Below, in pieces: positions 9,891-29,413 of a DNA stretch of 53,259 bases (positions are counted from its first letter, which is position 1; the number at the start of each line of letters is the position of its first letter). The notes under the pieces were generated by a model, which made no database searches, was not told the origin of the DNA, and saw nothing but the letters and a program-made list of their open reading frames with translations. The stretch lies in contig DAHXOK010000005.1 of the NCBI GenBank assembly GCA_027364935.1, forward strand, positions 1-53,259. The letters run 5' to 3'. Both the position numbers and the translations under genes were made by a program. Source of the DNA: Vulcanimicrobiota bacterium (GTDB lineage: Bacteria > Vulcanimicrobiota > Vulcanimicrobiia > Vulcanimicrobiales > Vulcanimicrobiaceae).

Positions 9891-12800
9891 TTACGGCGTA
9901 AAAGCAAAGACGGTTCCGTCGTTCTGCGTGCCTCCGCGATTGGTTGTGCCGTAGAGCGTGCCTCCAGCGTACGTCAGACCGGCGTAGGGAGTGTTACCGT
10001 CGGAGGCGCTACTGCAGAAACTGTACAGCACGCGCTCCGCGCCGCTGGACGGGTTGAGGCTGAAGATGGTTCCACATCCGTATGCACCACCCGCGGTGGT
10101 TGTTCCGTAGATCGTGCCGTGCACAAAGATCAAGGCTCCATCCGGTCCTGTACCGTCGCCGGGCGAACCGAAGCTGTGCAGAAGTCGATAGTTCCTGCCG
10201 TTAGTTCCGATGCTGAACGCGGTTCCTCCGCCATGCCCGCCGCCCTGTCCGCCGTACGCGCCGCCCTGATTCGTTACTCCGTAGAGCGTGTCTCCGACGT
10301 TGAGTAGCGTCGCGCTGGGCCCGCTGCCGTCGGTTCCCTCGCCGAAGTTATGCAGCACCGTTTCCTTTCCGGACGTCGTGACGCTGAACACCGTCCCATA
10401 GACGTGATCTGCCCACCCATTTCCGGGATCGTACCTGCCGCCGAAGTTCGTCACCCCGTAGAGCGTGCCGCCGACGTCGTTCACTCCTGCCGATTGGGGA
10501 CCGTCTCCGTCGCGCGCGTAACTGCGAAAGCCGAAAATCTGCTTCTCGGCACCGTTCGTCGTCAGGCTGAAGACGGTTCCGCATCCTCCGTCCGAACAGG
10601 TTAGCTGCCCGGGACCTTGGTTCGTCGTCCCATAGAACACGCCGCGAGATTCGAGGAGCGGCGCCTCTGGCTCATTGCCGTCGGAACCATTGCCGAAGCT
10701 GCGCACCACGCGATAGTTCGCGCCACTTGGATCGATGGCGAAGACGGTCCCGAAGTTGTCGTCGCAATTCAACCAGCACGGTGGCCCGAAGGCACCGCCC
10801 TGCGTCGTGGTGCCGTAGAGCGCCCCATTCAGAAAGACCAACCCTGCTTGTGGCATGCTTCCGTCGCCGTGGCGCCCAAAACTGTGCAGCACTCTCTCCG
10901 CACCGGCCTTGGTCACGCCGAAGATCGTTCCGCAACCGTCAGCGCAAGCGGCGTAGGCACCGCCGTTTTGAGTCGTACCGTAGAGCACGCCGTTCACTTC
11001 GATCACGCCCGCCGCCGGATCGGCGCCGTCGCCCCGGCCACCGACGAAACTGTGGACGATTCTATAGTTCGCCGATGGAGACGGCGCCGGCGTTGGTGGG
11101 ATCGGCGAGGACGCTGCCGACGGCGTGAAGGCTTCCATCGAACTGAGAATGGCATTGTTGTAGTTCCCGCCAACCGCATATATGACGCCGTTGACGACGC
11201 CCGCTGCGAAGACGGTGCGCGGCGTCTGTATTGGTGCCAATCCCGTCGTCCACGCGTTCGTCGCGGGATCGTATGCGTCGACGGTCCTGTCGTACGCCGG
11301 CGTGCCGTTGCTGCCGCTAACCACGTATAGGATGCCGCCGACGACGCCCGCCGCAAACGCGCCGCGGCGAGCCGGCAAAGGCGCTTTCGTCGTCCACGTG
11401 TTCGTCGACGGATCGTACGCCTCGAGCTTGTCGAGGCCAGCGTTCGTGCTCGAGAAGCCGCCGGCTACGTAGAGAATGCCGTCTATAACGCCGGCCCACG
11501 ATAAGAAACGCGCGGTCGGCATGGGCGCTCTCGTTGCCCAACTGTTCGTCGCCGGATCGTACGCCTCAAGCGTATTGTAGACGACGGATGGGCTCGCTTC
11601 GCTGCGACCTCCAACCGCGTATATGACGCCGTTCGCGCCGGCGACAGCCAGATAGATGCGTGGGGTCGGCATCGACGCCTTGACCGTCCACGCGTCCGTC
11701 GAGGGATCGTAGGCGTCAAGCTCCCCGGTTGGCGTGTCATATCCTAGGTCTCCACCGACCGCATACAACGTCGTGCCCGTAATCCCGGCAGCCAGACAGC
11801 AACGTGGCGTCGGCATCGACGCCTTCGTCGACCAGGCGTTCGTCGACGGATCGAATGCCCAGAGCTCGTTCCAGTACCCGCTGTTTTGCCCGCCGACGAC
11901 GTATAACGTGCCGTTGTTCGCGTCGCCAACGGCCGCCAACTCATTGAGAGCACCTGGCATCGCGGGGGCGCTGCTCCATGCCCCGCGAGGTAACGGCGCC
12001 GACGTCGCGGATATGCCGATCGATGGAGAGGGAGCCGGCAATGGTAGCACGGCGCTGCTTTCCGCAAACGCCAATGCCGTTGGATAACTCACGCCCGCGG
12101 AAATCGCTCGTATATATTGTCCCCCGGGCGCGTACACCGTGACCGTACCCACTCCGGTACTGCCGAACTGATTCGAAACGTAGAGCCTCCCACGCGCGTC
12201 AAAGGCGAGCGCAGTGGGTTCCCTGACGCCGGCCGTGATCTCGCGCACATACGCTGAGGTTTCGGGCGCGTACACGGTGACGTCGTTCTTATCGAGGTTG
12301 GCGACGTAGAGGTTTCCGGCGGCGTCGAAGGCGAGCGCATCGGGCGCCGAGAGGTCTTGTACGATCGTCCGCAAAGGCGATGTGCGCCCGAAAGCGTAGA
12401 CCGTGACGCTGCCGCTATTTGCGACGTAAAGGTCGCCCGAACGATCGAACGCAAGCGCCGTGGGCCGGCTCACGCCGGAAATCAGGGTGTACGCCGGCGA
12501 CGCACTGCCGGGCGCGTAGACGGCGACGCTGGCCGCGCCGGATAAGGGGCTATTCGCTACATAGAGATATCCGCGAAAATCGAGCGCCAGCGCGGTTGGA
12601 TTCGTGATGCCGTTCGCGATCGTGCGCAGCGGCGACGCCGTTCCCGGGCTATACACCGTAACGCACCCTTCCGGACAATCAGCAGGGGCAGTGGCCGAAG
12701 CTCGCTGGTTTGCAACGTACAGACGATCCGCGCCATCGAACGCCAACGCAACGGGGTTGTTGATTCCCTCCGAAATGCTGCGCGGCGTTTGGGGCGCAGC

Positions 12801-13088
12801 CTTCGCATATACCGTTATCGACCCGCCGACGTACTGTGCTGAGGGAGCGTTTACCACATACAGATTGCCGACGGCATCGAACGCGGCTGCCCTCGGATTA
12901 CCTATGCCCGCCGTAATCGTTCTCGGCACGAGATTGCTGGGGTCGAAAAGCGTGATGCTGTTGCCGTTGGTGACGACAAAGGGGCGGAACGCGACAGAGC
13001 CTCCCGCTGATTCACTGTTGCGCGCGGCAAGAACCGCGGCAAACATCAGAAGGGTACCGATCGCGTAACCCGCGCGCCGCCCGCTCAT
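9891..13088 (-). CDS. Large secreted multi-propeller protein: NHL/YVTN-like, Kelch and GloVer (TIGR03803-like) repeats
   Basis: Repeats SxPTALAFDxxGxLYVAN..VTVYAPG (N-term), Kelch LYVVGG..AYDPxTNxWTTKAPMPTxR (middle), VLHSFGxxGDGxxPxAGLxxVNGxLYGTTxxGG (C-term). Confidence 0.9.
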   Translation of the reverse strand: MSGRRAGYAIGTLLMFAAVLAARNSESAGGSVAFRPFVVTNGNSITLFDPSNLVPRTITAGIGNPRAAAFDAVGNLYVVNAPSAQYVGGSITVYAKAAPQTPRSISEGINNPVALAFDGADRLYVANQRASATAPADCPEGCVTVYSPGTASPLRTIANGITNPTALALDFRGYLYVANSPLSGAASVAVYAPGSASPAYTLISGVSRPTALAFDRSGDLYVANSGSVTVYAFGRTSPLRTIVQDLSAPDALAFDAAGNLYVANLDKNDVTVYAPETSAYVREITAGVREPTALAFDARGRLYVSNQFGSTGVGTVTVYAPGGQYIRAISAGVSYPTALAFAESSAVLPLPAPSPSIGISATSAPLPRGAWSSAPAMPGALNELAAVGDANNGTLYVVGGQNSGYWNELWAFDPSTNAWSTKASMPTPRCCLAAGITGTTLYAVGGDLGYDTPTGELDAYDPSTDAWTVKASMPTPRIYLAVAGANGVIYAVGGRSEASPSVVYNTLEAYDPATNSWATRAPMPTARFLSWAGVIDGILYVAGGFSSTNAGLDKLEAYDPSTNTWTTKAPLPARRGAFAAGVVGGILYVVSGSNGTPAYDRTVDAYDPATNAWTTGLAPIQTPRTVFAAGVVNGVIYAVGGNYNNAILSSMEAFTPSAASSPIPPTPAPSPSANYRIVHSFVGGRGDGADPAAGVIEVNGVLYGTTQNGGAYAACADGCGTIFGVTKAGAERVLHSFGRHGDGSMPQAGLVFLNGALYGTTTQGGAFGPPCWLNCDDNFGTVFAIDPSGANYRVVRSFGNGSDGNEPEAPLLESRGVFYGTTNQGPGQLTCSDGGCGTVFSLTTNGAEKQIFGFRSYARDGDGPQSAGVNDVGGTLYGVTNFGGRYDPGNGWADHVYGTVFSVTTSGKETVLHNFGEGTDGSGPSATLLNVGDTLYGVTNQGGAYGGQGGGHGGGTAFSIGTNGRNYRLLHSFGSPGDGTGPDGALIFVHGTIYGTTTAGGAYGCGTIFSLNPSSGAERVLYSFCSSASDGNTPYAGLTYAGGTLYGTTNRGGTQNDGTVFAFTP

Positions 13089-13100
13089 ATTACGTCTTCA

Positions 13101-14690
13101 TCATCTCGCGGATGCTCTGCTGGGAGTCGGTTGAGGTGACGGACTCGGCACTCCGTTGATGATCGCCTGAACCCGTTCGATGCTTTGCGTGGTCGACGCC
13201 ATGCCGGAGCGATCGCCGAGCTCCTGGAAGATCGCGAGCGCCTGCTGATACGATTGCAGCGCGCCGGCGTATTGGCCTTGCTGCTCCAGGACGTAGCCGA
13301 TGTTGCCGCGGGTTCGCGCTTCACCCTCGCGGTCGCCTAGTGCCTGGAAGAGCACGAGCGCCTGGCGGTGCGATTGCAGCGCGTCCGCGTAGCGACCTTG
13401 ATTCATTTGAACGATGCCGATATTGTTGAGGGTACGCGCCTCGCCGTCGCGGTCGCCCAACTCCTGGAAGAGCGCGAACGCCTGCTGGTACGATTGCAGC
13501 GCGCCGGCGTATTGACCTTGGACCCATTGAACGATGCCGATGTTGCCGAGAGCGCTCGCCTCGCCCTCACGATCGCCCAACTCCCGCGAGAGCGCAAACG
13601 CCTGCTGATGCGACTGCAGCGCGACGGCGTACTGGCCTTGAGCCGTTTGAACGATGCCGATGTTATTGAGCGTTCGCGCCTCGCCGCCGCTGTCGCCCAA
13701 CTCGCGATACAGTTCTAGCGCCCGCTGGTACGATTGCAGTGCGCCGGCGTATTGGCTTTGATCCATATGGACAATGCCGGTGTTGTTGAGTGCGCTCGCC
13801 TCGCCCTCGCGGTCACCCTGTTCCCGATAATACGCAAGGGCTCGGTCATATGATTGCAGCGAGCCGGCATAGTGACCTTGGTACTCTTGGACTATACCAA
13901 GGTTCACGAGGGCAGCGTTTACGGCATTAGCATCACCGCTCTGTTGTGCCGCAGCAAACTGCTGCTGATAAAACGTCGCGGCTTCGGCAAAGTTCGCAAA
14001 CGTCGCCAAGTACCACGTCGAGGTCGGATGATAGGTTACTTGCGGTCTGTTCGCCGCGGAAATTACGTCGATCAACGATGCTTTCACCGGCGTGGCGCCG
14101 ATCAATAGATAGCCGGTCCTCGTGATGTTCACCTCACCGCGGGTGCACGTAAAGGTCACTGCGTTCGAACTGCCGCTGATCTCAAACTTAGTACCAGGAA
14201 CCGCGGCATCGATCTGCGGCCCGGACTGCACCCGGAAGAAGTCTAAGGAACCATGCACGATATCGAATCTCACGTCGCCGCCGCTGCGATTGACGAGCTC
14301 CCCTGAGCCGGTGCTCACGAAGGTGACGCTGGCGCCAGGATCGAGCGTTGCCGTGCTCTTTCCGCCGGTACTCACGATGATCACGACGACGTGTGCCGGA
14401 ACGGCGATCGTCGTGCCGTCGAAGATCGTCTCGCCACGGCATATCGTGTCCTGGACGACGCCACCGCGGCGCACGGTCACGCCGGCGGACTCGACGCTCT
14501 TCCCGTCGACGAGAATTCGCTGGACCGTGTGCACGCGCTGTGAAGCCGCGAGCGCCGATGACGGCCACGCGCAGGCCGCCGCAACCAGTCCAATGGACAG
14601 TCTCTGCTGTGAAGCCGCGAACGCCGACGACGGCCACACGCAGGCTACCGCAAGCAGCCCAATGGAGAGTGTCTTCGGAGACAACTTCAC
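13101..14690 (-). CDS. FecR-domain protein with C-terminal TPR repeats, secreted
   Basis: GTG start overlapping upstream stop (GTGA); FecR-like region GGVVQDTICRGETIFDGTTIAVPAHVVVIIVSTGGKSTATLDPGASV...; about seven 40-aa TPR units (GDREGEARTLNNIGIVQxxQGQYAxALQSYQQAL). Confidence 0.88.
   Translation of the reverse strand: MKLSPKTLSIGLLAVACVWPSSAFAASQQRLSIGLVAAACAWPSSALAASQRVHTVQRILVDGKSVESAGVTVRRGGVVQDTICRGETIFDGTTIAVPAHVVVIIVSTGGKSTATLDPGASVTFVSTGSGELVNRSGGDVRFDIVHGSLDFFRVQSGPQIDAAVPGTKFEISGSSNAVTFTCTRGEVNITRTGYLLIGATPVKASLIDVISAANRPQVTYHPTSTWYLATFANFAEAATFYQQQFAAAQQSGDANAVNAALVNLGIVQEYQGHYAGSLQSYDRALAYYREQGDREGEASALNNTGIVHMDQSQYAGALQSYQRALELYRELGDSGGEARTLNNIGIVQTAQGQYAVALQSHQQAFALSRELGDREGEASALGNIGIVQWVQGQYAGALQSYQQAFALFQELGDRDGEARTLNNIGIVQMNQGRYADALQSHRQALVLFQALGDREGEARTRGNIGYVLEQQGQYAGALQSYQQALAIFQELGDRSGMASTTQSIERVQAIINGVPSPSPQPTPSRASAR
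13180..13900. repeat. Approx. 120-bp tandem TPR-encoding repeats
   Basis: Periodic CGATTGCAGCGCGCCGGCGTATTG...TGAACGATGCCGATGTT blocks. Confidence 0.85.
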
Positions 14691-16453
14691 GGAGACGCGT
14701 CTCCCCGCTCAGGTTTTGCCGGGCTCGGCTGATGCGATAGTCGCTCGACGATTTCGTCGATGTACTCCTGGACGAGATGCGGGTTATCGTCGACGCTCCG
14801 CCCTTGGATATCGTCGACCGGTTCATAAATCTTCGGATGACCGAGCATGACCGGAAAGACGCAGCGCGATCCGATGCCGGCTGCGATCCACTTCCGGTGC
14901 GCTCGCATAATCTCGAAGAGACAGTATGGTTTCTTGAAGTACGTCGTCGAGTATACGGGCACGACAAACCTGCTCGCATCGAGCGAGAACGAAATCTTCG
15001 CTTGCCATCCGGAGCCGCCGCGAATCGCCGACTGGTCGAAGAAAACGGAGAGGCTCTTTCCATCCGGTAGCTTCGCGCGATGGAATGGCAGGTACACATG
15101 CTCGTAGACCCAAGCTCCATCCTCGCGCGCGTAGCTGAGGAAGACATCGTAATCGTAGGCTTCCACTGGTAGCGGCACGAAGGCGTTCGCTTCATCGGTG
15201 AGGACTTGGTGGCCGCGAGTGACGCTCAGCCCGGATGCCAGGACGACCCCTATCGCAATCAGCGAAACTTGTGGCTGAATGTGATGCGATGAGAACATCC
15301 ACCACTCAAAGAGCATCAACGCACCAAGACCGGCGACAACGGCGGGCCCCAGCGAAAGCCACGGTAACAGAGGCCGTAACGTGCGCAGACGAGTGCGCTT
15401 AAGGAGGAGGAACGAATTCGTGTAAATCAGCACCGCGATACCCGAGAAGAGCGGTATTAGCAAGAAAAGCCACGGCCCTTGCGGGTCGAGGTCGTAGTAC
15501 AGTCCGGTTCCTCCCTGCGTTTGCGCGTCGCTCAGCGCCCAGCCAAGCACCTCAGGACCGCTTCGGTCCGTCCGCGTCGAGGTGTCGCGTTCGATCGATC
15601 CGACGATCACGTCTTTCCCCTCGAGCGCGGCATAGCTCTGAAATGTACGAGCGTTAGTAAACCTGTAGACCAGTGGCGCGGTTGGGCCGAGGCGAACCGC
15701 ATTCTCCGTTGTTGCGCAGGTTAGGTGCTTCGTGTTGGCCGGGTCCCTGAGCACCAAGACGCGGTCGACCATTGACCAGATGTCTTCATCTGCCTCTATG
15801 TCGTTGCTGACAAATGGGACGTCGCTGTAGCAATCACGATAATAGAGGTCGGTCTTACTGCGCTCCGTGGGAATAAATATCGTGTCCGCAGACGCGCTGA
15901 CAACGCCATAAATACGCCGATCCTCTGGGTAGACGTCCGCCAGGGGCAGGTCGGTAGAAGTACTGACCGGGAACTCTTCTGCCCCATAGACGGGAAAGAA
16001 GCCCGTACCCACGGCAGTACGAATGCTTGCGATGAGTGTCGCGCGTGCGCCTCTCTGCGCCGCGGTACATGGAGTGTTTGGGCAGGGACCGAATAGGATG
16101 TCGAGGATGATAGCATCGGGATGTCGATGCTGTGGGTCGTGATTGATTGATTGCACGAGGCCATTGAGGAAGTCGGCAACGCGCAGGCGGTTCGACGGGA
16201 CCGCGGAGCGTCTCGGATCCCATGGGGTGATGTCCACGATCGGAAACTGACGCGAATATCTTGGCTCGGATCGGGTGCTGAGCCAGGAGAAAAACTGCCA
16301 ATCCCAATCCTTCCACGCGGGGACCAGATACGCGATCGCAGCCATGAGGACGACGTAGACGCATGTAAGAAGCGCGACTCGGCCGACCCATGACGGTAGG
16401 TCCTCAGCCAAGAACCGCCGCGCTCTGAACAGGGCGCGCTGCACAAAGTTCAT
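14687..16453 (-). CDS. Membrane protein: TM + CHASE2-like extracytoplasmic sensor + 3 TM + C-terminal TIR domain
   Basis: N-terminal TM, FPIVDITPWDPRR..DAIILDILFG (CHASE2-like), three TM helices, then YDYDVFLSYAREDGAWVYEHVYLPF...SLSVFFDQSAI..GSGWQAKISFSLDASRFVVPVYSTTYFKKPYCLFEIMRAHRKW (TIR; CxxE). Confidence 0.87.
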   Translation of the reverse strand: MNFVQRALFRARRFLAEDLPSWVGRVALLTCVYVVLMAAIAYLVPAWKDWDWQFFSWLSTRSEPRYSRQFPIVDITPWDPRRSAVPSNRLRVADFLNGLVQSINHDPQHRHPDAIILDILFGPCPNTPCTAAQRGARATLIASIRTAVGTGFFPVYGAEEFPVSTSTDLPLADVYPEDRRIYGVVSASADTIFIPTERSKTDLYYRDCYSDVPFVSNDIEADEDIWSMVDRVLVLRDPANTKHLTCATTENAVRLGPTAPLVYRFTNARTFQSYAALEGKDVIVGSIERDTSTRTDRSGPEVLGWALSDAQTQGGTGLYYDLDPQGPWLFLLIPLFSGIAVLIYTNSFLLLKRTRLRTLRPLLPWLSLGPAVVAGLGALMLFEWWMFSSHHIQPQVSLIAIGVVLASGLSVTRGHQVLTDEANAFVPLPVEAYDYDVFLSYAREDGAWVYEHVYLPFHRAKLPDGKSLSVFFDQSAIRGGSGWQAKISFSLDASRFVVPVYSTTYFKKPYCLFEIMRAHRKWIAAGIGSRCVFPVMLGHPKIYEPVDDIQGRSVDDNPHLVQEYIDEIVERLSHQPSPAKPERGDASP

Positions 16454-17336: not shown

Positions 17337-18236
17337 TCACAGCGGGGTGCACCGCTGTTCCCCGTCAGCAAAAATGAGGTCGAACGCCTGTGGCAGAGCA
17401 TCCTTGAATACCACGTTCGCAAAGGTGAATCCGTCTTCTAAGCGCGGATAGACGACGGTCCACGTCGTGTTGCCGAGGTTCGGCGACGCGTAGCTTGTAG
17501 CGATGAAATACGAATCCGTAAACGCGTTAATGGCGACCGCAACCCACTCTCCCGAGACCGTAAAGATATTATACTCGTACACCACTTGGTGGGCGGAGTT
17601 CGTTCCCACGCCTTGCCACCAGTTATTGCCGAGTCGCCTTATGCTGAGCGCGGTGGGGTAGCCGGATCCGGACGAGATGTCCGCCGTACGCATCGTGTCG
17701 CAGCTCAGCGTGGGTTGCGGCAAACTCGGCAACCGTGCAGCGCTTTTGTTGCAGACTTGCATCAAATTCGCGTAGGTGATCGTAAACTGCGTAGCGGTCT
17801 CGTTGAACTCGTAGGCACCGCCTGCGACAGGAAAGTTCACGCTCCATTGCGAGCCGGATAATCCGTTGGGGCTAGCCGGGCTCGTGCCCACGAAAAATGT
17901 TCCCTTGCCTTCCAATGGGTTAACTTGGATATAGACGGAGCCCGAGCCCGTTTCGTCCGGCCCGACGTAGTAGTCGTATTCTGCGGGTTGCCCGGGCGCC
18001 GGAGCCGTGCCGGGTTGTGGTCGCGCGGTCCCGTGCAGCCAATGACTGCCGAGCGGTTCGACGCTGTCCTGCTCCCCGAAAACCTGACCGTTCACGCCGG
18101 TGGTCTCGCAGTTCCACATTGAAATCAACTGGGCAGCCCGCGACTGCGCGGCAGATATCCCAGTACTCGCTGCCACAATGGATAGACACAACGCGACGGT
18201 CGAGAGCCGGATGGCGATCTTATGCATCGAGTGCAC
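17337..18236 (-). CDS. Hypothetical secreted protein
   Basis: 299 aa; signal peptide IRLSTVALCLSIVAASTGISAAQS. Confidence 0.7.
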   Translation of the reverse strand: MHSMHKIAIRLSTVALCLSIVAASTGISAAQSRAAQLISMWNCETTGVNGQVFGEQDSVEPLGSHWLHGTARPQPGTAPAPGQPAEYDYYVGPDETGSGSVYIQVNPLEGKGTFFVGTSPASPNGLSGSQWSVNFPVAGGAYEFNETATQFTITYANLMQVCNKSAARLPSLPQPTLSCDTMRTADISSGSGYPTALSIRRLGNNWWQGVGTNSAHQVVYEYNIFTVSGEWVAVAINAFTDSYFIATSYASPNLGNTTWTVVYPRLEDGFTFANVVFKDALPQAFDLIFADGEQRCTPL

Positions 18237-18257
18237 TCCCAGCAGTTCAGAATCCCA

Positions 18258-19628
18258 TTACGGACGAGGTGTTGGACGTGTTGCCGGTTGCGGTGTACCG
18301 GGCAAGAGCATGCGGATGGAAGCGTGGTTGTTCGGTTCGGCGAGCCCCGGCTCGCGGCAGAATGGGGCGGAGGGTCTACCCAGCGGATGGTATTGGCCAA
18401 GCCCGGCCGGCGGGTTGTACGCCGGCAACCGGCGGGCCCCCCCGACGATGTCGGCGGCGGCCGGCGTGCCTATCGCCTGTGGCGCGGCTTGCCAGCAATT
18501 CATATCGCCGATCAGCTTCATCGCGAGCGCTTGCAGCGTATTCCACGTCTGGAGATCGACCGCGGTCGGCGTCAATGGAGCGCTGCTATTCGTGTAGTTG
18601 ATTGAACTCCCCAAGAAGCTGCCGGCGATGCCGCCGAGCTGCGAAGCATTATATGACGTCGTGTTCGACGTGTCCACCTCGCTGACATAACCCGTGGAGG
18701 GGACGGGCTTGGGCGCTGGGATACCGGTACGCCTTGACGTAACGTTTGTCGATCGCACTGGCGCGAAGTCCTCATACATCGACGTCAACGCGAGGAGCGT
18801 TGCAAGCGGCATCAACGGCGTAAACGTACTGTGTTGGCTCTCCTGTCTCTCGATATTGGACAGCCATGTGAACGCAGGCGAACCACGCGCCGTCGTATGC
18901 GAGCACTGGGCATACGAGGTGGTCGCTTCGATGGCGGTCCAACTCCGTCGACTGATGAACTCGTCACTCGACCCGCTTCCCGAGGCGCCGATGTTCACGA
19001 CGATTGCGCCCTCGACATTGGGCGAACTTTCACATTGGGCCGCATAGGACGCGAGCGTCAATGTGGGCTCTGGGATCAATATCGCGTTGCCCACGAAGTG
19101 GTACCCTGCCTCGTCCCTGCCGGCATTAAGGAAGACCGTGAGCGTCGAGACGAGTTTGGACACCATCGGTACGTCGGCACCGAAACCCATGACGAAGATC
19201 ACGGGCTTGAAGCCCGTTGCGCCCGGAAGCTCCCAGGGGATCATCTCAGACGCCGCCGATGGTGGCGACGTCACGAGCGTTTCGCAGAATCGCAGGTGCG
19301 CCCAAAGCTGGCGCACATCGTTGCGCTCGCCTCGCGACGGTTTACAGGCCCCCGTCTGACCGGCTCCGAGTGCTGCCTCGCACGACGCGAGGCGGCTTCT
19401 GAGGACGCGGCTCAGATACGTTGAAACGCCGCGGGGCATTGGCACTGGCGTGGGCTTCGCGACGGGTGCACCGAGGTAGACCGCGACGATCTCGGAAAGG
19501 CGCTTCGCGCTACAGCCCTGCCCGGAGAGCGGCGCGGACGCTGAAGCAGCCGGCGCGCCGATAGTACTCACGACCAGCGCCACGCTGGCAGCAGCCATGG
19601 CGATAGTGCCAAGCGCCCCGTGCTTCAT
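18258..19628 (-). CDS. Hypothetical secreted protein
   Basis: 456 aa; signal peptide IAMAAASVALVVSTIGAPAASASA; 21-nt gap to the downstream gene. Confidence 0.7.
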   Translation of the reverse strand: MKHGALGTIAMAAASVALVVSTIGAPAASASAPLSGQGCSAKRLSEIVAVYLGAPVAKPTPVPMPRGVSTYLSRVLRSRLASCEAALGAGQTGACKPSRGERNDVRQLWAHLRFCETLVTSPPSAASEMIPWELPGATGFKPVIFVMGFGADVPMVSKLVSTLTVFLNAGRDEAGYHFVGNAILIPEPTLTLASYAAQCESSPNVEGAIVVNIGASGSGSSDEFISRRSWTAIEATTSYAQCSHTTARGSPAFTWLSNIERQESQHSTFTPLMPLATLLALTSMYEDFAPVRSTNVTSRRTGIPAPKPVPSTGYVSEVDTSNTTSYNASQLGGIAGSFLGSSINYTNSSAPLTPTAVDLQTWNTLQALAMKLIGDMNCWQAAPQAIGTPAAADIVGGARRLPAYNPPAGLGQYHPLGRPSAPFCREPGLAEPNNHASIRMLLPGTPQPATRPTPRP

Positions 19629-19671
19629 GCAGCAACCTCCGATCGCTGCACGGCCTTTTCTTCTGCAGAGC

Positions 19672-21084
19672 TTACGGCTCCTTGCTTATATGTTGCGGCG
19701 TCGACTTACGTGGAAGAAGAACTGCAGCACCCGCGGCGAGGAGCGCCATCGCGGCCGACGCGAGCATCGCGTGAGAGAAACCTTGTGGGTTCGACGGTAC
19801 CGGCACGGCGCGATTGCCGGTCCACGCGATCACGATTCCGAGGGCGGCAATAGCGAGGAGATTGCCGACGCGCGAGATGGAGTTGTTGATGCCCGACGCA
19901 GCACCGATGTCGTTCGTATCGGCCGCTCCCATGATGACGCTGACTAATGGCGCGATTGCCACTGAGAGCCCAATGCCCAACACGGTCGTGGCCGGAAAGA
20001 CGCTTCCTAGGTACGGCGCGCCACTCCCCAGCCGCGAAAAGAGCCCAAATCCTATGGCCGAGACAATCGCGCCGGAGACGAGCGACGCTCGAGGACTGAT
20101 GTGCGCCGCCAACGCGGTTGCGAACGGAGAGAACAACGCGATAAGCACGATCGTCGGCAGCAACGCCAAACCGGCAGCAAAGGGCCGGTAATCCATGACG
20201 TGCTGGAGCTCGTACGGAACGAAGAATAGCGCGCCGCCGAGGGCGGCGTAGAGGAGCAACGTGTACACGCTCGCGACCGAGAATGCGGGCGCAGAGAAGA
20301 GCCGAAGCGGAACCACCGGAGCCGACGCCACGCGTTCGGCGAAGACGAATGCCACCATGAGGACGAGCCCTGCGACGAGGAGCGCAACGGCGTACGGATG
20401 ATTGCGATGTTGCATCTCGATCATGGCAACCACGATCAGGCCGAGACCAACGGCAGCGAGCATGCTGCCGAGAACGTCAGGCTTACCGCGGACGCGTTTC
20501 GCACGGCTCTCCGGGACTCGCGTATAGGAAACGACGAGTACCAAGATCGCCAGCGGAATGTTGATCCAGAAAACACCTCGCCACGAAGCGTTCTGCGTAA
20601 ACCATCCGCCGAGCGCCGGACCGATTGCCATCGTAATCGCCGACGCGGCGGCCCAAATGCCGATCGCCCGGCCGCGTTCTCGAGCGTCGAACGCCGCGGT
20701 TATCAGCGCAAGGCTTCCCGGGATCATCACGGCCGCCCCGGCGCCTTGCGCGCAGCGCGCGACGATGAGGGCGCCCGGCGTCGTTGCAAGAGCGCACCCC
20801 ACAGACGAGAGCGCGAATATCCACGTCCCCAGCGTGAAAAGGCGACGGCGTCCGTAACGGTCGCCGAGCCCCCCGCCGATGAGAATCAGCGAGCAGAGGA
20901 AGAGCAGGTATGCCTCGACGATCCATTGCGCTTGTGAATCGGTTGCGACGAGCCTTCTCTGTATGACCGGCAATGCCACGGTAAGTGCAGTGCTGTCGAT
21001 GTAGCTCATGCTCGAGGCGACGATCGCCGCCGTCAACACCGCGCCACCCGCGCCGAGCCGGGCCGGTGATACTGGCGCAGCCAT
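19672..21084 (-). CDS. MFS transporter, DHA2 (EmrB/QacA-like) drug efflux family
   Basis: 14-TM-like hydrophobic pattern, GGGLGDRYGRRRLF motif A, PALGGWFTQNASWRGVFWINIP motif C-like. Confidence 0.92.
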   Translation of the reverse strand: MAAPVSPARLGAGGAVLTAAIVASSMSYIDSTALTVALPVIQRRLVATDSQAQWIVEAYLLFLCSLILIGGGLGDRYGRRRLFTLGTWIFALSSVGCALATTPGALIVARCAQGAGAAVMIPGSLALITAAFDARERGRAIGIWAAASAITMAIGPALGGWFTQNASWRGVFWINIPLAILVLVVSYTRVPESRAKRVRGKPDVLGSMLAAVGLGLIVVAMIEMQHRNHPYAVALLVAGLVLMVAFVFAERVASAPVVPLRLFSAPAFSVASVYTLLLYAALGGALFFVPYELQHVMDYRPFAAGLALLPTIVLIALFSPFATALAAHISPRASLVSGAIVSAIGFGLFSRLGSGAPYLGSVFPATTVLGIGLSVAIAPLVSVIMGAADTNDIGAASGINNSISRVGNLLAIAALGIVIAWTGNRAVPVPSNPQGFSHAMLASAAMALLAAGAAVLLPRKSTPQHISKEP

Positions 21085-21174
21085 CGTAACGAGCCTTTGC
21101 CTTGGAGGGTCCGGCGCCCTACGGGCTTGACCGTCAGGCAAGAAATCGCGGACTGCTCAACCAACCATATCGTC

Positions 21175-22809
21175 GTGAGTTCGGCTCGAGCAGAGATCCT
21201 GACCGATCGGCTGTCGATCGTGGTAGGCGTCACGGGCCATCGCGATATCGCAGCGGACGATGAACGTCGATTACGCGAAGCGTTTGGGCGAGTATTGCAA
21301 GAACTTTCGCAGTCGTGTCCGCATACGCCGCTGCTCGTTCTCTCCGGGCTCGCGGCCGGCGCCGATTCGCTTGCGGCGCAGGAAGCGATCGCGAGGAACA
21401 TCCCGGTTCTTGCGTGCCTTCCGATGCCCGTGGAAGAGTACGAAAAGGATTTCTCCGCCCCGGAGCTCGTGAGGTTTCGGGCCTTGCTCGCCGCTGCGGC
21501 TCGCGTGACCGTAACGTCGCCGACGCGCGAGAACGGCTATACCGCCGTCGCACGGTTTATCGCGCAGTACAGTCACCTTCTCGTCGCATTTTGGGATGGG
21601 CAAACCTCGCGCGGCCCGGGCGGTACGGCTGATGTCGTTGAGATGCGGCTCACCGGCAGCACGCGAACCGGCGACATTGAATCCATTCCGTATCTGCCGG
21701 ACATCGGCCCCGTCGACCAGATCGTCACGCCGCGTTTGAGCGCTCCCTGTCAGAGCGAACCCTTTCAGGTACGCCGTCTCTATCCACATCGGTACGCACA
21801 AGAGCATGACGGCCGACAATCATTTCTCCGAATGCTCGCCGCAATAGACACGTACAATGCCGATCTTGCACGTACGTCCGTTCCGGAACGCGACTTGGGC
21901 CTGCAGACGCTCATGGAAAGAACCGATGCGGCGGCAAATCGCCTTCAAAAACGCACTGCCGCCATTCAGACGAGCTTGCTCTCGGTCGCGTTCGTGGTCG
22001 CAGGCTTTCAAATCATTACGCAACTCCCTTCCATCATAAAAATCTTCGGCCTAGCAGTCGCGTTCGGCATTTACTGGTGGGCGCGCAAGTACGATTATGA
22101 GAACCGGTATCAAGATTATCGCGCCATTGCCGAAGGTCTGCGCGTTCAGAGCGCGTGGTATTGCGCCGGCTTGCGTCACAAGCTCGCCGACAACGCATAC
22201 CTAAAAATGCAAGAGGGAGAGCTGCAGTGGATTCGCATGGCCTTGCGTTTCTTTTACCTCGCGCTGTGTGAGAGCCGCGCGTTCGCCGATGCGTCGCACG
22301 CGCATCCCGTCTGCGAGGATTGGGTGCAATCGCAGCGGCGCTATTACGAGCGCGCGGGCCGCCGCGAATCTGCCGTCAAAGCACGGCTCGATCGCATTAC
22401 GCTCGTGGCTGTGATCGTGGGCCTTCTGTGCATGGCAACGTCTCTGGCAGAGCTGATCCGGTACAATGCGTTATGCGTGCTTGTCGGCACGTGCCACAAG
22501 CCGTATGCGGCGCCTGAGAACGTCGCCTTCCTGCGCGAGCTATTCAGCGTGCCGCTCGCGATGGCGGCGGTGCTCGGAGCGGTCATCGAGCATTATGTCG
22601 AGAAGCAAAATCTCGTCGCAAACGCGCGACGCTACGAACGCATGTACCGCGTCTTCGACCGCGCGCAAGCAGAACTCGCTCGCATCGGTCACGGAGCGCA
22701 AGGGAACCCCGAGAAGATCATCTACGAACTCGGTCACGCCGCCTTGATCGAGCACGCCGAATGGCTCATCATGTGCCGCGATCGTCCGATGAAGGTGGTC
22801 GTGGTTTGA
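21175..22809 (+). CDS. SLOG-like domain protein with multiple C-terminal TM helices
   Basis: LSIVVGVTGHRDI..LLVLSGLAAGADSLAAQEAIARNIPVLACLPMPVEEYEKDF (SLOG/LOG-like); TM segments at SLLSVAFVVAGFQII, GLAVAFGIYWWA, TLVAVIVGLLCMATSL, VPLAMAAVLGAVI. GTG start chosen; ORF extends to ATG 21097. Confidence 0.8.
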   Translation: MSSARAEILTDRLSIVVGVTGHRDIAADDERRLREAFGRVLQELSQSCPHTPLLVLSGLAAGADSLAAQEAIARNIPVLACLPMPVEEYEKDFSAPELVRFRALLAAAARVTVTSPTRENGYTAVARFIAQYSHLLVAFWDGQTSRGPGGTADVVEMRLTGSTRTGDIESIPYLPDIGPVDQIVTPRLSAPCQSEPFQVRRLYPHRYAQEHDGRQSFLRMLAAIDTYNADLARTSVPERDLGLQTLMERTDAAANRLQKRTAAIQTSLLSVAFVVAGFQIITQLPSIIKIFGLAVAFGIYWWARKYDYENRYQDYRAIAEGLRVQSAWYCAGLRHKLADNAYLKMQEGELQWIRMALRFFYLALCESRAFADASHAHPVCEDWVQSQRRYYERAGRRESAVKARLDRITLVAVIVGLLCMATSLAELIRYNALCVLVGTCHKPYAAPENVAFLRELFSVPLAMAAVLGAVIEHYVEKQNLVANARRYERMYRVFDRAQAELARIGHGAQGNPEKIIYELGHAALIEHAEWLIMCRDRPMKVVVV

Positions 22810-24128
22810 GTCATCTCGACGGACTCATCGACGCCCCGGGGCAAAAAAAGTTGCTGTCGGTCGACGGTGGCGGCATTCGCGGCCTGATCGCGATTGAGTT
22901 CCTGTCGCGCATCGAAAGCACGCTTCGCGACACGTTGCAACGGCCGGAGCTGCGACTGAGCGACTACTTCGATTACGTCGGCGGCACCAGCACCGGCGCC
23001 ATTATCGCGACGTTGATCGCACTCGGATATTCGGTGGACGAAATACGCTCGTTCTACCGAACCGGAGCGCACACGATGTTCGATCCCAATCGCTTCCAGC
23101 GCATTGCCCGGCGCTTGAAAGGGCCTTTCGCGGTCGCAATGGGCGTGCTCGGCATGGTGGTATATAAGACGATGTACGATCCGCTTCCGCTCGAGCGAGA
23201 GATCAAGCAGGTTCTTGGGGATCCGCTTCCCGGCGCTGCAAGAAGCGGCGATAATGCCGGACTGACGACGCTCGGCACCGAGAAGCTTCTCACGCTGCTC
23301 ATGATCGTGACGCGCAACGTGAGCACCGACTCACCGTGGCCTCTTTCGAATAACCCGCGCGCGAAATACAATCTTCGAAAAGGCGAAGAGCCGACGAATC
23401 TCGACTTGCCGCTTTGGCAACTGGTTCGCGCGAGCACGGCCGCACCCGTCTTCTTCCCTCCGGAGCGCATCGACATTCCGGGCGTCAAAAAGCCTTTCAT
23501 CTTCATGGACGGTGGAATCACCGTATTCAACAATCCGGCCTTTCAACTATTCCTCATGGCCACGCTCCCCGAATACCGTCTGCAGTGGCAGCCGGGAGAG
23601 CGAGAGATCCTTCTCGTTTCCGTAGGAACCGGGCTTTGCGAGAGCGCGAACCTCGACCTCGGCACGCAGCAGATGAATCTCTTTTATAACGTCCAATCGA
23701 CGCCCGCTGCGCTCATGCGCGCCGCGACGGTCGAACAGGACGTTCTCTGCCGCGTCTTCGGTAAGGCGCTGCCGGCGTGCACCCCATCGGTGATCGACTC
23801 GGAGATCGGCGGCCTCATCGAGAACCACGCGCCGCTGAAAGACAAACTGTTCACCTACCTACGGTATAACGTCGAGTTATCCGAGGCCGGCCTCGGCGAT
23901 CTTGGCCTGTACGATCGAGAGCAATCGCCTCCCGGCATCGATCCGAAATCGGTACAGCCGCTCGATAGCATCGTTCATCTCGACGAGCTGGAGCAAGTCG
24001 GCAAGGCCGCAGCACGACAGCGCGTCGCCACGCAAGACTTCGACGGATTCTTCTCGGCCCGCCAAAGTCGGGCGACGCCGCCGCTTCAAATTGCCCGTCC
24101 AGCTCTACACAATTTCGGCTCGGCGTAG
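22761..24128 (+). CDS. Patatin-like phospholipase
   Basis: DGGGIRG oxyanion motif, GGTSTGAII nucleophile elbow, FMDGGITVFNNP catalytic Asp. Starts inside the upstream gene (ATG 22761 or TTG 22806). Confidence 0.93.
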   Translation: MAHHVPRSSDEGGRGLSHLDGLIDAPGQKKLLSVDGGGIRGLIAIEFLSRIESTLRDTLQRPELRLSDYFDYVGGTSTGAIIATLIALGYSVDEIRSFYRTGAHTMFDPNRFQRIARRLKGPFAVAMGVLGMVVYKTMYDPLPLEREIKQVLGDPLPGAARSGDNAGLTTLGTEKLLTLLMIVTRNVSTDSPWPLSNNPRAKYNLRKGEEPTNLDLPLWQLVRASTAAPVFFPPERIDIPGVKKPFIFMDGGITVFNNPAFQLFLMATLPEYRLQWQPGEREILLVSVGTGLCESANLDLGTQQMNLFYNVQSTPAALMRAATVEQDVLCRVFGKALPACTPSVIDSEIGGLIENHAPLKDKLFTYLRYNVELSEAGLGDLGLYDREQSPPGIDPKSVQPLDSIVHLDELEQVGKAAARQRVATQDFDGFFSARQSRATPPLQIARPALHNFGSA

Positions 24129-25552: not shown

Positions 25553-26098
25553 TAGCGCCGGCCTCCGGGCGGCGTCGGCGATGCTTGCGGCAAGGGTGGT
25601 GGCGAAGGAACGAGTCCAGACTGCTGCACGATTTGACCGTTGACGCTCGTCGTCGACCACAGCGCCGTCGACGACGTTTCGATCAATGCGTCGCTTCCGG
25701 CGGACCACATGTCGCGCTTACCAGATGCCAGCTCGAACGGTTGATTCCCATGCGTTCCGTCGACGAGCTGCCGCACGAGGGCGATGAACACGCCGTTGCT
25801 CTGCGTCACGGAGTCGACCGTCGTCGTGCATCGCGTGAGCGTCACGCTCGTAGACGCGCGCTCGAGCGACGTCACGACATCGTCCCGCGAATACGTTTGG
25901 CCTTCGACGTGAGCCGTGAAGCTCGGACTCAAGGTGCGCGCGAAATCCTCGAAATCGCCGCGCACGATGTCCGCACATTGTGCATCGTACGCCGCTTGGA
26001 CGCCGGAAGCCGACGCGCCGCTGACGGCCGGTGAGGCGGGCCCGGCGCAGATGAGAAGCAGCGAAGCTAACGAACTGCCGAGACGCACGAATTCCATG
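25552..26098 (-). CDS. Secreted NTF2/SnoaL-like protein
   Basis: Signal peptide then ADIVRGDFEDFARTLSPSFTAHVEGQTYSRDDVVTSLERA, typical of NTF2-like (DUF4440-type) folds; start inferred. Confidence 0.6.
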
Positions 26099-26153
26099 CC
26101 AGATGATTTGCACGGCGGTACGAAAACATCCGCTCGCGAAGAGTCTCCCCATA

Positions 26154-29100
26154 TGGGCCTTTCGGCGCGCCTTCGGCTCGTGGCGAGTGCGCTTATCATA
26201 GGCTGCCTTGCCGCATGCGCGGGGCAGCCGAAACCGAGCCCAGCCGCGGTACGGGTGCCGACGCTTCGCGACCTCGGCGCGCTCGCCTGGCGATGGGTCG
26301 GCCCGGCGCAGATGGGCGGACGGCTCGACGTCGTCGCCGGCGTCGCGGGAGATCCGCGAACGATCTATCTTGGTCACTCCTCCGGCGGGTTGTACAAATC
26401 GACTGACGGTGGCGCGACGTTCGCGCCGATCTTCAACGAAGGAACGTCGTCCGCGATCGGCGCGCTCGCCGTCGCGCCGTCGAACCCAAGCGTGCTCTAC
26501 GTCGGAACCGGCGAGGGCTTCCCGCGCAACACCGCGTCTCCGGGCGACGGTGTCTTCGTCTCGACGAACGCAGGAAAGACCTGGAGGTTCTCTGGGCTGC
26601 GATCGAGCGCACACATCGCGAAGATCGCCGTCGATCCGCACGACGCGGAGGTCGCGATCGTTGCGGCGCTCGGACCGGAGTGGACGCCGGGCGGCGAGCG
26701 CGGCCTCTATCGCACTGCAGACGGCGGCAAGACGTGGCAGCGCGTGCTCTTCGTGAACGCGACGACCGGCGGGAGCGACGTCGTCTTCGATTCGCAAGAT
26801 CCGAACGTCGTCTACGCCGGAACTTTCGATTTCTTGCGCAGGCCGTGGACGTTCCGCGGCGGCGGTACGGGAAGCGGTCTGTACCGCTCCGACGACAACG
26901 GGCGCACGTGGCAGCGCTTGACGGACCCGGCGTTGCACGACGGCCTTCCCGGCGGGATCATCAACCGCGTCGGCGTCGCGCTCTGCGACGCGCATCCGCG
27001 CGTCGTCTACGCGCTCGTGCCCACGAAAACGGGTCTCCTCTATCGCTCGGACGACGGCGGCGCACGCTGGACGCCGGTGAACGCGAATGCCGAGCTGGAC
27101 TTTCGGCCCTTCTATTTTTCACAAGTGCGCGTCGATCCGCGCGATCCGCAGCGCGTGTACGTCATCACGGGTGAGAACCAAGTCTCGAAGGACGGCGGAA
27201 AGACGTTCGCACGTTTCGGCGGTGGCGGCGACAATCACGATCTCTGGATCGATCCCGCCGACCCGCAACGGATGCTCGCCGGAAGCGACATGGGATTCGA
27301 GTACTCCGTCAACGGTGGCTCTACGTGGACGTACGACAACGTCGTACCGTTCGCACAGGTCTATCGCGTCGGCTACGATCTCGACGTGCCGTTCCACATC
27401 ATGGGCGGGATGCAGGATCACGAAGTGTGGTGGGGGCCGAACACGCTCTGGAACGACGGCGAGTACGGCGGCGTGCCTGGCGGCGCGTGGCGCAACATCT
27501 CGGATTGGGGCGACGGCCAGTACGCCGTCGCCGATCCGCACAATCCCGACATCGTCTACGAGGACACGCACTTCGGAGACCTGGTTCGGCGCGATCTGCG
27601 CACCGGCGAGGCGAGGTACATCTCGCCCCAGCCCTTGATCACCTTCGGCACCGGCGTCGGCGCGTACCCGTATCGCTTCAACTGGAGCGCGCCGCTCTAC
27701 CTCTCACCCCACGACCCGCACGTGCTCTACTTCGGCGGCAACGTGCTCTTCAAGACGACCGACGGCGGTGCGACGTGGGACGTCGTCAGCCCCGATCTTT
27801 CGCAGCCGTGCGACGCGCGATGGCTCGGCCCGAGCGGTGGACCCGTATCGCGCGACGACACGAACGCCGAAGCCTATTGTACGATCTACGCGATCGCAGA
27901 GGACGCCGGAAATGCAACGACGCTCTGGGCAGGCACCGATGACGGCAACCTTTGGTTAACGCGCGACGGCGGCGCGCACTGGGCCAACCTCGACGCCAAC
28001 ATTCCGAACCTGCCTCGTCAAGCCGTCGTCTCCTCGATCGACGCGTCGCGGACGACGCCGGGCGTGGCCTACGTCTCGTTCGATCGCCATGGCTTGGGCG
28101 ACGAACGTCCCCACGTCTATTTCACGTCCGATTACGGGCGCACGTGGGCGGACATCTCGCGCGGGTTGCCGAGCTACGTGCACGTCGTGCGCGAGGATCC
28201 GCGACAGACGAATCTTCTCTTCGCCGGCACCGAGCAAGGCGTCTGGACGTCATTCGACCGTGGCAAGCATTGGTTGAGCCTCATGCTCGGAATGGCGCCG
28301 GTCCCAGTGTACGATCTAAAGATCCAACCCGTCTTCAACGACCTCATCCTCGGAACGCACGGCCGCGGGTTCTACGTTCTCGACGACGTGACGCCGCTCG
28401 AGCAGCTCGCGCAGCGCCCTGCAAACGCGCCGGTGCTCTACCCGCCGATGCCTGCGTGGCGATACGTCCCGCGCCCGACCTACGAACCCGGACGCGGCGC
28501 GTTCGTCTCCGACAACACGCCATACGGAGCGCTCATCTCCTACTATCTGCCGACGCCGGCGAAGGGCAGGAAGCCGCCGCACGTCGCGCTGCAAATCCTC
28601 AACCAAAGCGGCGCGGTCGTGCGCACGCTCGATCCGACCGCGAAGCCCGGCATCAATCGCGTCGTCTGGGATCTGCACGCCGACCCGCCCGGCGGCAGCC
28701 ACGCCGCCCAGGACGCCCGCATCTACTACGTTTTCTACCTCCTGCACGTTGCCGGTCCACAAGTCGTTCCCGGCTCGTATGCGGTTCGGCTCCAGGTCGG
28801 AAGCGACGTCGAAGACCGCGTGCTCGACGTGAAGCTCGATCCCGCGTCGCACGCGTCTGTAAGCGCGTTACAGGCGCAGTACGACGCACTCGACCGTCTC
28901 GCGCGGATGCAGGAGAGCGGCGAAGCCGAGCTCGCGATCATCGCCTCGCTCGATGCACAGATTCGCACGCTGCACGCTCCGAGCGTAGCGCTCGAGAGCG
29001 CGCTCTCGTCCTACCGGCGCGACCTCGATTCGGCTGCAGACGCGCTGCGCAACGGCAACGGAAGCCAGAACAGCGGCTACAAGCATCCCGCAGAGCTGAT

Positions 29101-29413
29101 CGATGCCATCGCCTACCAGCGTCACATTCTTCCGACCTACTTGGGGCCGCCCACGCAGGCGCAGCAAGAACTCATCGACGCCTACGGCCGTCAGTCGCTG
29201 GCGATGGCCGCACGCACGCACGCGCTCTTTACGAGCGCTCTTGCCGCCGTCAACGTGCGGCTCGCGCGCGCGAAGCTCGCGCCGCTTCGCGCGGCGGTGC
29301 TATCGCCTAGACGTCCCGCTGCTCTTCGACGAGCACGCGCTCGATTGCCGCCTCGATGCGCTCGAGTCCGGCACCACCCGCTTGAAAGTGCCTCAGCTCG
29401 TGGCTGCGATTGA
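26154..29413 (+). CDS. VPS10/sortilin-type BNR-repeat lipoprotein (glycosyl-hydrolase-like propeller)
   Basis: Lipobox GCLAAC; repeated YLGHSSGGLYKSTDGGATF, GLYRTADGGKTWQRV, LYRSDDGGARW motifs. C-terminal about 35 aa overlap the convergent gene. Confidence 0.88.

What the first reader, a model, noticed from the sequence alone, without database searches (positions are those of the whole stretch)
9891..16453. Candidate undescribed system: CHASE2-TIR / FecR-TPR / tri-propeller operon
Three minus-strand genes appear co-transcribed. The TIR gene stop overlaps the FecR-TPR start (GTGA, 14687-14690), and the propeller gene starts 13 nt after the FecR-TPR stop. All three products carry predicted extracytoplasmic modules, and the only intracellular catalytic candidate is the TIR domain. 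Inference: an envelope-sensing module whose output is NAD cleavage or a nucleotide signal, with FecR-TPR and the propellers as periplasmic or surface sensing scaffolds. From memory, CHASE2 proteins usually carry nucleotide cyclase or kinase outputs, and FecR proteins often sit nearby; replacing that output with TIR would be notable.
Basis: partly seen in the sequence, partly recalled or inferred. Interest (0 to 1): 0.88.

Follow-up and report, generated by a model that had tools for sequence, protein, structure and literature searches.

The report
Membrane TIR receptor with lipase module
A soil bacterium of a little-studied phylum carries a membrane protein that joins an outward-facing sensor to an inward-facing TIR enzyme, paired with a secreted helper and lying beside a nucleotide-sensor/membrane-damage module, so it probably turns an outside cue into an immune-type alarm molecule, a layout reminiscent of animal Toll-like receptors.

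Summary
The three genes exist as described. Gene A (14687-16453) is TM-sensor-3TM-TIR; the CHASE2 call is weak in the window (E 0.009) but clear in relatives (7/14 members, best 8.5e-10), and the catalytic Glu (E514) is invariant. Gene B (13101-14690) is a secreted FecR-TPR protein.

A and B form a conserved pair: a FecR-repeat gene lies directly downstream of 12 of 14 CHASE2-TIR genes, mostly with a 4-nt overlap, and the two co-diverge (Mantel r 0.935). The tri-propeller gene sits beside A only in the window, so the three-gene operon is not supported.

Genes 21127-22809 (SLOG plus SLATT-like 2TM segments) and 22806-24128 (CapV-like patatin) form a second unit. The SLOG gene lies within 6 kb of CHASE2-TIR in 7/10 genomes that have it (4 of 5 genera; 0.05 expected), in some within one tight operon. 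In genomes without CHASE2-TIR it often sits beside other TIR genes, such as TIR-DUF4062/nSTAND1.

Best reading: CHASE2/FecR replaces the usual input of a TIR nucleotide-signalling conflict system with an envelope-facing one. No chemistry or phenotype was tested. New variant of a known kind.

The parts
14687..16453 (-). Gene A: CHASE2-TIR membrane protein, 588 aa (1 TM, outer domain, 3 TM, cytoplasmic TIR)
15476..16393 (-). TM1 (res 21-43) and predicted extracytoplasmic CHASE2-like alpha/beta domain (to res 326)
   Evidence: Pfam CHASE2 E=0.0093 here, best 8.5e-10 and 7/14 members in relatives; AlphaFold secondary structure
15182..15475 (-). Three TM helices (res 327-353, 360-388, 396-424)
14732..15154 (-). 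TIR domain (res 434-574), catalytic Glu E514 at 14912-14914
   Evidence: TIR_2 4.7e-14; E514 invariant in 14/14; Foldseek best hit AbTir NADase, prob 1.00; E514 aligns with the Glu of the plant RUN1 TIR motif
13101..14690 (-). Gene B: exported FecR-TPR protein, 529 aa, GTG start inside the stop of A (4-nt overlap)
   Evidence: FecR-repeat gene directly downstream of A in 12 of 14 loci examined
21127..22809 (+). Gene D: SLOG domain (res ~31-200) plus SLATT/DUF4231-like TM segments (res ~259-346 and 394-551), 560 aa
   Evidence: Family scan of 25 homologues: DUF4231 20/25, SLATT_3 15/25, SLATT_1 14/25, YAcAr SLOG 12/25; model pLDDT 83.8, best PDB hit YpsA 2.7e-5; linked to A and other TIR genes
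22806..24128 (+). Gene E: patatin-like phospholipase, 440 aa, 4-nt overlap with D; GGGIRG, GTSTG and DGG motifs intact
   Evidence: Pfam Patatin 4.2e-27; PADLOC phospholipase effector 2e-36; PDB matches include CapV; motifs
17337..21084 (-). Flanking block: two secreted proteins of unknown family (17337-18236, 18258-19628) and an MFS transporter (19672-21084); conserved neighbours of D/E, role unknown
9891..13088 (-). Gene C: NHL/SGL + Kelch + 7x TIGR03803 propeller protein, 1065 aa, 12 nt after B; co-directional but probably not a conserved part
   Evidence: no propeller beside other A genes; no full-length orthologue in the genus

Best explanation
A and B are the input half, and D and E the output half, of a TIR-based nucleotide-signalling conflict system. 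B, exported, and the outer CHASE2 domain of A receive an extracytoplasmic cue (inferred). This changes the arrangement of the cytoplasmic TIR domains of A, which then act on NAD+ and release an ADP-ribose-type signal (inferred from the intact TIR active site and the partner genes). The SLOG domain of D binds the signal and its 2TM SLATT-like segments disturb the membrane, while patatin E degrades phospholipid, giving growth arrest or death of the cell (inferred from the known behaviour of the domain families). The same D/E module is used elsewhere in the phylum with a cytoplasmic TIR-DUF4062/nSTAND1 input, so A+B is a swapped-in, membrane-facing input. Shown here: architectures, conservation of the pair, and the gene linkage. 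Not shown: the cue, the chemistry, the phenotype.
For: A-B: a FecR-repeat gene directly downstream in 12 of 14 loci, mostly 4-nt overlap; co-divergence including paralogues within one genome, Mantel r 0.935, p 5e-5. TIR active-site Glu invariant. A-D: within 6 kb in 7 of 10 genomes and 4 of 5 genera, 0.05 expected; all 10 A genomes have D against 36 of 149 overall, Fisher 2.3e-7. Tight operons: D-A-B in L121 (D/A overlap 4 nt), D-TPR_S-A-B in L123 and L125, A-B-D-E in L120. D within 6 kb of any TIR_2 gene in 24 of 36 genomes, 0.5 expected, in 10 of 14 genera. D fold matches SLOG proteins; E matches CapV, the cGAMP-activated phospholipase. Published: SLOG of ThsA binds TIR-made 3'cADPR (PMC11204291); SLATT predicted as ADPr-regulated membrane effector (PMC9503650); CHASE2 cyclases sense a plant protein through an outer-membrane protein (PMC13001267).
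Against: In the window A and D are divergent and 4.7 kb apart with four genes between, and three of those genes accompany D/E in relatives whether or not A is near. This genome also has a TIR-DUF4062/nSTAND1 pair elsewhere (L212), which could be the true partner of D/E. In G002, G003 and G057 A is not near D, though two of those contigs are short. SLOG and SLATT Pfam scores in D are below curated cut-offs. E was not found in G061, G069 or G120. Nothing shows that the system acts against phage.
Confidence: 0.55

Rival explanations
1. A+B is a free-standing envelope sensor whose TIR output regulates physiology (a second messenger like cAMP in CHASE2 cyclase systems), and its closeness to D/E reflects shared residence in defence-rich islands.
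For: CHASE2+FecR(+TPR) clusters with cyclase or kinase output are regulatory (PMC9239204, PMC5192318, PMC13001267). Other TIR systems also lie near A in G120 and G129. In G002, G003 and G057 A is away from D.
Against: Translational coupling D-A-B in G120 and D-TPR_S-A-B in G127/G129, and the A-B-D-E order in G080, are more than island neighbourhood. All 10 A genomes carry D.
Confidence: 0.25
2. A acts alone as an NADase that depletes NAD+ when the outer domains are engaged; D/E are not needed.
For: Closest solved TIR folds include NAD+ hydrolases such as AbTir; the catalytic Glu is invariant.
Against: D is within 6 kb of a TIR gene in 24/36 genomes, and TPR-S, described in Pfam as a sensor domain, sits in the operon in two genomes; both suggest that a product is read by a partner.
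Confidence: 0.12
3. The three genes A, B and C form an envelope-sensing operon with the propellers as a surface scaffold.
For: Same strand, 12-nt gap between B and C in the window, and C appears to have an N-terminal export signal (inspection of the sequence).
Against: No propeller gene next to any other CHASE2-TIR; C has only partial matches elsewhere in the genus.
Confidence: 0.05
4. The TIR is a non-catalytic interaction domain that recruits cytoplasmic TIR partners.
For: Many TIR domains act as scaffolds; the Foldseek hits include scaffold TIRs such as MAL and MyD88.
Against: Active-site Glu, Ser and Arg positions invariant over members as low as 32% identity.
Confidence: 0.03

Closest known systems
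Thoeris (ThsB TIR + ThsA SIR2-SLOG or TM-macro)
   Same: A TIR protein next to a protein with a SLOG domain or with TM segments, which in Thoeris binds the TIR product (PMC11204291).
   Different: TIR here is a membrane receptor with a CHASE2 outer domain and a secreted FecR partner. D has SLOG fused to SLATT-like TM segments, with no SIR2 and no macro domain. A patatin is present. No PADLOC Thoeris match.
CHASE2 cyclase / CHASE2 kinase clusters with FecR and TPR genes
   Same: CHASE2 membrane protein coupled to FecR-domain and TPR extracytoplasmic proteins (PMC9239204 in Campylobacterota, PMC5192318 in Burkholderia).
   Different: Output is TIR, not cyclase or histidine kinase; FecR and TPR are fused in one protein; linked to a SLOG-SLATT/patatin module.
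SLOG/SLATT nucleotide-centric conflict systems (Burroughs and Aravind)
   Same: TIR genes next to SLATT 2TM proteins and SLOG sensors, and STAND-type inputs (PMC9503650, PMC7159879).
   Different: Those systems are described with cytoplasmic inputs; no CHASE2-TIR or FecR input was found in the papers searched.
CBASS patatin effector CapV
   Same: Gene E resembles the CBASS phospholipase effectors.
   Different: The linked signal enzyme is a TIR protein; no CD-NTase was noted in the stretches annotated, though none was searched for specifically.

Membership tests
TIR NADase/cyclase domain | TIR fold with the catalytic Glu | tested here: met
   TIR_2 in 14/14, E514 invariant, Foldseek prob 1.00 to TIR structures
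TIR NADase/cyclase domain | NAD+ cleavage activity | not testable with these tools
   Needs an enzyme assay
CHASE2 | Profile match above the curated cut-off | tested here: inconclusive
   16.0 bits in the window protein against cut-off 26.3; 7/14 relatives match at E<0.05, best 8.5e-10
CHASE2 | One TM, outer alpha/beta domain, three TM, then cytoplasmic output | tested here: met
   Hydropathy and AlphaFold model
CHASE2-FecR signalling cluster | FecR-domain gene adjacent to the CHASE2 gene | tested here: met
   12/14 directly adjacent, 13/14 within 2 kb; FecR itself is slightly below the Pfam cut-off
CHASE2-FecR signalling cluster | Cyclase or histidine kinase output | tested here: not met
   Output domain is TIR
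Thoeris | ThsA effector with SIR2-SLOG or TM-macro | tested here: not met
   No SIR2 or macro domain in 25 D homologues; no Thoeris PADLOC match for A, B, C, D, E
Thoeris | TIR product sensed by the partner protein | not testable with these tools
   Needs product identification and binding assays
CBASS | CD-NTase signal enzyme next to the effector | not tested
   No dedicated search for a CD-NTase was run; the linked signal enzyme found is a TIR protein
SLOG-SLATT protein | SLOG Rossmannoid domain and 2TM SLATT domain | tested here: met
   SLOG by fold (YpsA 2.7e-5) and profile in 12/25; DUF4231/SLATT profiles in 14-20 of 25; individual scores are sub-threshold in the window protein

The most novel reading that the evidence does not exclude
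A bacterial analogue of a Toll-like receptor at the level of layout: an envelope-facing receptor with a cytoplasmic TIR enzyme that senses an extracytoplasmic cue with a secreted FecR-TPR co-receptor and fires a nucleotide signal into a shared SLOG-SLATT/patatin killing module, alternative to a cytoplasmic STAND-TIR input.
Probability: 0.4. Interest if true: 0.88.

Novelty: new variant of a known kind. Interest (0 to 1): 0.72.

Why it matters
The bacterial TIR immune systems cited here are described with cytoplasmic inputs. A TIR enzyme behind an outer sensor, with the same effector module shared between an envelope input and a STAND input, would show that the sensing half of these systems is exchangeable and that cells can trigger the TIR response from outside. 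It would also give a simple bacterial parallel to the receptor layout of animal Toll-like receptors, although no common descent is claimed. It makes directly testable which cue CHASE2/FecR pairs sense, an open question (PMC5192318 notes that CHASE2 ligands are unknown).

Tried and rejected
Propeller gene as a third component: rejected, not conserved. CHASE2-TIR in other phyla: the genome-contig scan with an alignment returned ten CHASE2-TIR loci, all Eremiobacterota/WPS-2, and TIR-only matches elsewhere; seven of those other genomes and a sample of 301 genomes of the phylum of L046 (an Anaerolineae record) gave TIR-only matches, none reaching into the CHASE2 part. A strongly diverged fusion could be missed, and Cyanobacteria and Proteobacteria were not sampled. 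PADLOC gave no named system for A or B. Promoter and terminator scans were below the shuffled expectation and uninformative. A sequence search of the PDB with the D profile gave nothing; the fold search did. My first ORF caller merged or missed overlapping genes in GC-rich DNA (L036, L042) and was replaced by a codon-scored one, which still missed a few ORFs (A in L124, D in L175). Searches for CHASE2 with phage defence, FecR with TIR, and SLATT with patatin found no description of this arrangement.
Full report
Source and observation. The window is contig C117 of a 2.2 Mb assembly, and its relatives carry records named Candidatus Eremiobacterota or candidate division WPS-2. A (14687-16453) and B (13101-14690) overlap in GTGA; C (9891-13088) starts after a 12-nt gap. 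Profiles confirm TIR_2 in A, TPR in B, and Kelch, SGL/NHL-type and TIGR03803 repeats in C. CHASE2 in A and FecR in B are below the curated cut-offs in the window proteins.

Is CHASE2 real? Scanning 14 homologues of A singly, 14 match TIR_2 and 7 match CHASE2 (best 8.5e-10). The AlphaFold model (14 sequences, mean pLDDT 77.6, pTM 0.51) shows a helix at 21-43, an alpha/beta region to about residue 314, three long helices at 327-353, 360-388 and 396-424, and a TIR fold at 437-574. Hydropathy agrees. One TM, outer domain and three TM before the output is the CHASE2 layout described for the Burkholderia histidine kinase (PMC5192318). The TIR part matches TIR structures in Foldseek, AbTir first. E514 is invariant in all 14 and aligns with the Glu of the WCLDE motif of the plant RUN1 TIR.

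Conservation of the pair. CHASE2-TIR genes were found in 10 of 149 phylum genomes, in five genera of one family (four further genomes gave only short partial matches). In 14 loci examined, a FecR-repeat gene follows directly in 12, most with a 4-nt overlap. In one (L119) an RHS-repeat gene stands between. In one (L021) a GDSL lipase gene follows instead. The repeat part varies: TPR in most, Sel1 in L022 and L118. All B proteins read from their start have a hydrophobic export-like N-terminus, and one (L019) has a lipobox-like LSGC (by inspection). Pairwise distances of A and of the FecR part of B correlate at r = 0.935 (13 pairs, permutation p 5e-5), with paralogous pairs in G057 and G003 included. 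Shared vertical descent contributes to this figure.

The propeller gene. None of the other loci has a propeller gene next to A or B. In the genus the C protein finds only partial NHL-type matches, the best outside the window at E = 1e-26. C is therefore probably a neighbour, not a component.

The missed half. On the plus strand at 21127-22809 lies a 560-aa protein beginning IVVGVTGHRDI, overlapping by 4 nt a patatin gene at 22806-24128. Pfam gives weak SLOG (DNA_processg_A, YAcAr) and SLATT/DUF4231 matches to the first and a strong Patatin match to the second. PADLOC calls the patatin a phospholipase effector (2e-36), and PDB matches include CapV. Over 25 homologues of the first protein, DUF4231 matches 20, SLATT_3 15, SLATT_1 14 and YAcAr 12. 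Its AlphaFold model (mean pLDDT 83.8, pTM 0.83) matches YpsA and DprA-type SLOG folds.

Linkage. D was found in 39 of 149 genomes, 36 with good matches. All 10 A genomes have D (Fisher 2.3e-7). A and D are within 6 kb in 7 of 10 genomes and in 4 of 5 genera; 0.05 such cases are expected for random placement. The arrangements differ, which argues against one inherited accident: A-B-D-E on one strand in G080 (L120); D-A-B with D and A overlapping by 4 nt in G120 (L121); D-TPR_S-A-B in G129 and G127 (L123, L125), with patatin and a small SLOG-like gene opposite; divergent D and A in G069 and G061. TPR-S (PF20308) is described by Pfam as a TPR sensor. These P values treat genomes as independent; the genus counts are the safer figure.

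D belongs with TIR in general. D lies within 6 kb of some TIR_2 gene in 24 of 36 genomes, 0.5 expected, in 10 of 14 genera. In many genomes without A the neighbour is a TIR-DUF4062 gene followed by an nSTAND1-TPR gene. The window genome has that pair too, on another contig (L212). The D/E unit is thus a shared TIR-linked output, and CHASE2-TIR with FecR is one of at least two inputs.

Mechanism. Shown: architecture, active-site conservation, pairing and linkage. Inferred: B and the outer CHASE2 domain take up an extracytoplasmic cue; TIR makes an ADP-ribose-type signal; SLOG of D reads it; SLATT segments and patatin damage the membrane. Precedents: ThsB/ThsA signalling by 3'cADPR through SLOG (PMC11204291); SLATT as a predicted ADPr-regulated membrane effector found next to TIR genes (PMC9503650; PMC7159879); CHASE2 cyclases responding to a plant protein through the outer-membrane protein NsrA (PMC13001267); CHASE2 cyclases clustered with FecR and TPR genes (PMC9239204). 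A defence role is plausible but untested.

Caveats. In the window itself A and D are 4.7 kb apart and divergent, and the MFS transporter and two secreted proteins between them accompany D/E in relatives whether or not A is near. All genomes are assemblies of uncultured organisms, many fragmented, so absences are weak evidence. The patatin was not found in three A genomes (G061, G069, G120), one of them 68% complete.

Novelty. One open-access paper in the library holds both CHASE2 and TIR domain, and it mentions CHASE2 in a different protein (read). No paper holds both FecR domain and TIR domain. Outside Eremiobacterota no CHASE2-TIR was found in one collection-wide scan and a sample of 301 genomes of another phylum. 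The parts are known kinds; their combination appears undescribed in what could be searched. Subscription papers and preprints were not available.

Noticed in passing
window 14544-14690 (start of gene B): B begins with what looks like a tandem-duplicated signal peptide (23-aa lag, 63% nucleotide identity at a 69-nt lag).
   Followed up: partly
window 17337-18236 and 18258-19628: Two secreted proteins without Pfam matches are conserved neighbours of the SLOG-SLATT/patatin unit in G001, G003, G057 and G077.
   Followed up: partly
L107-L114, e.g. L109:3932-9778: CHASE2 protein without a recognised output domain, a ~300-aa gene without Pfam match and a large TPR gene (CHAT domain in the one scanned, L109) form a separate conserved cluster in other genera: possibly CHASE2 coupled to a CHAT protease.
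   Followed up: partly
L024-L029 (G002): At least seven FecR-TPR genes in one genome, some in tandem, many at contig ends; expansion not explained.
   Followed up: no
L212:6817-12407 (G000 contig C74): TIR-DUF4062 and nSTAND1-TPR gene pair in the window's own genome, a second TIR system.
   Followed up: partly
L119:9347-11047: RHS-repeat gene inserted between a divergent CHASE2-TIR gene and its FecR-like partner.
   Followed up: no
window 25916-29413: Large Sortilin/BNR-repeat protein next to the patatin gene; homologues lie near CHASE2-TIR in L118 (about 39% identity) and at the edge of L119.
   Followed up: no
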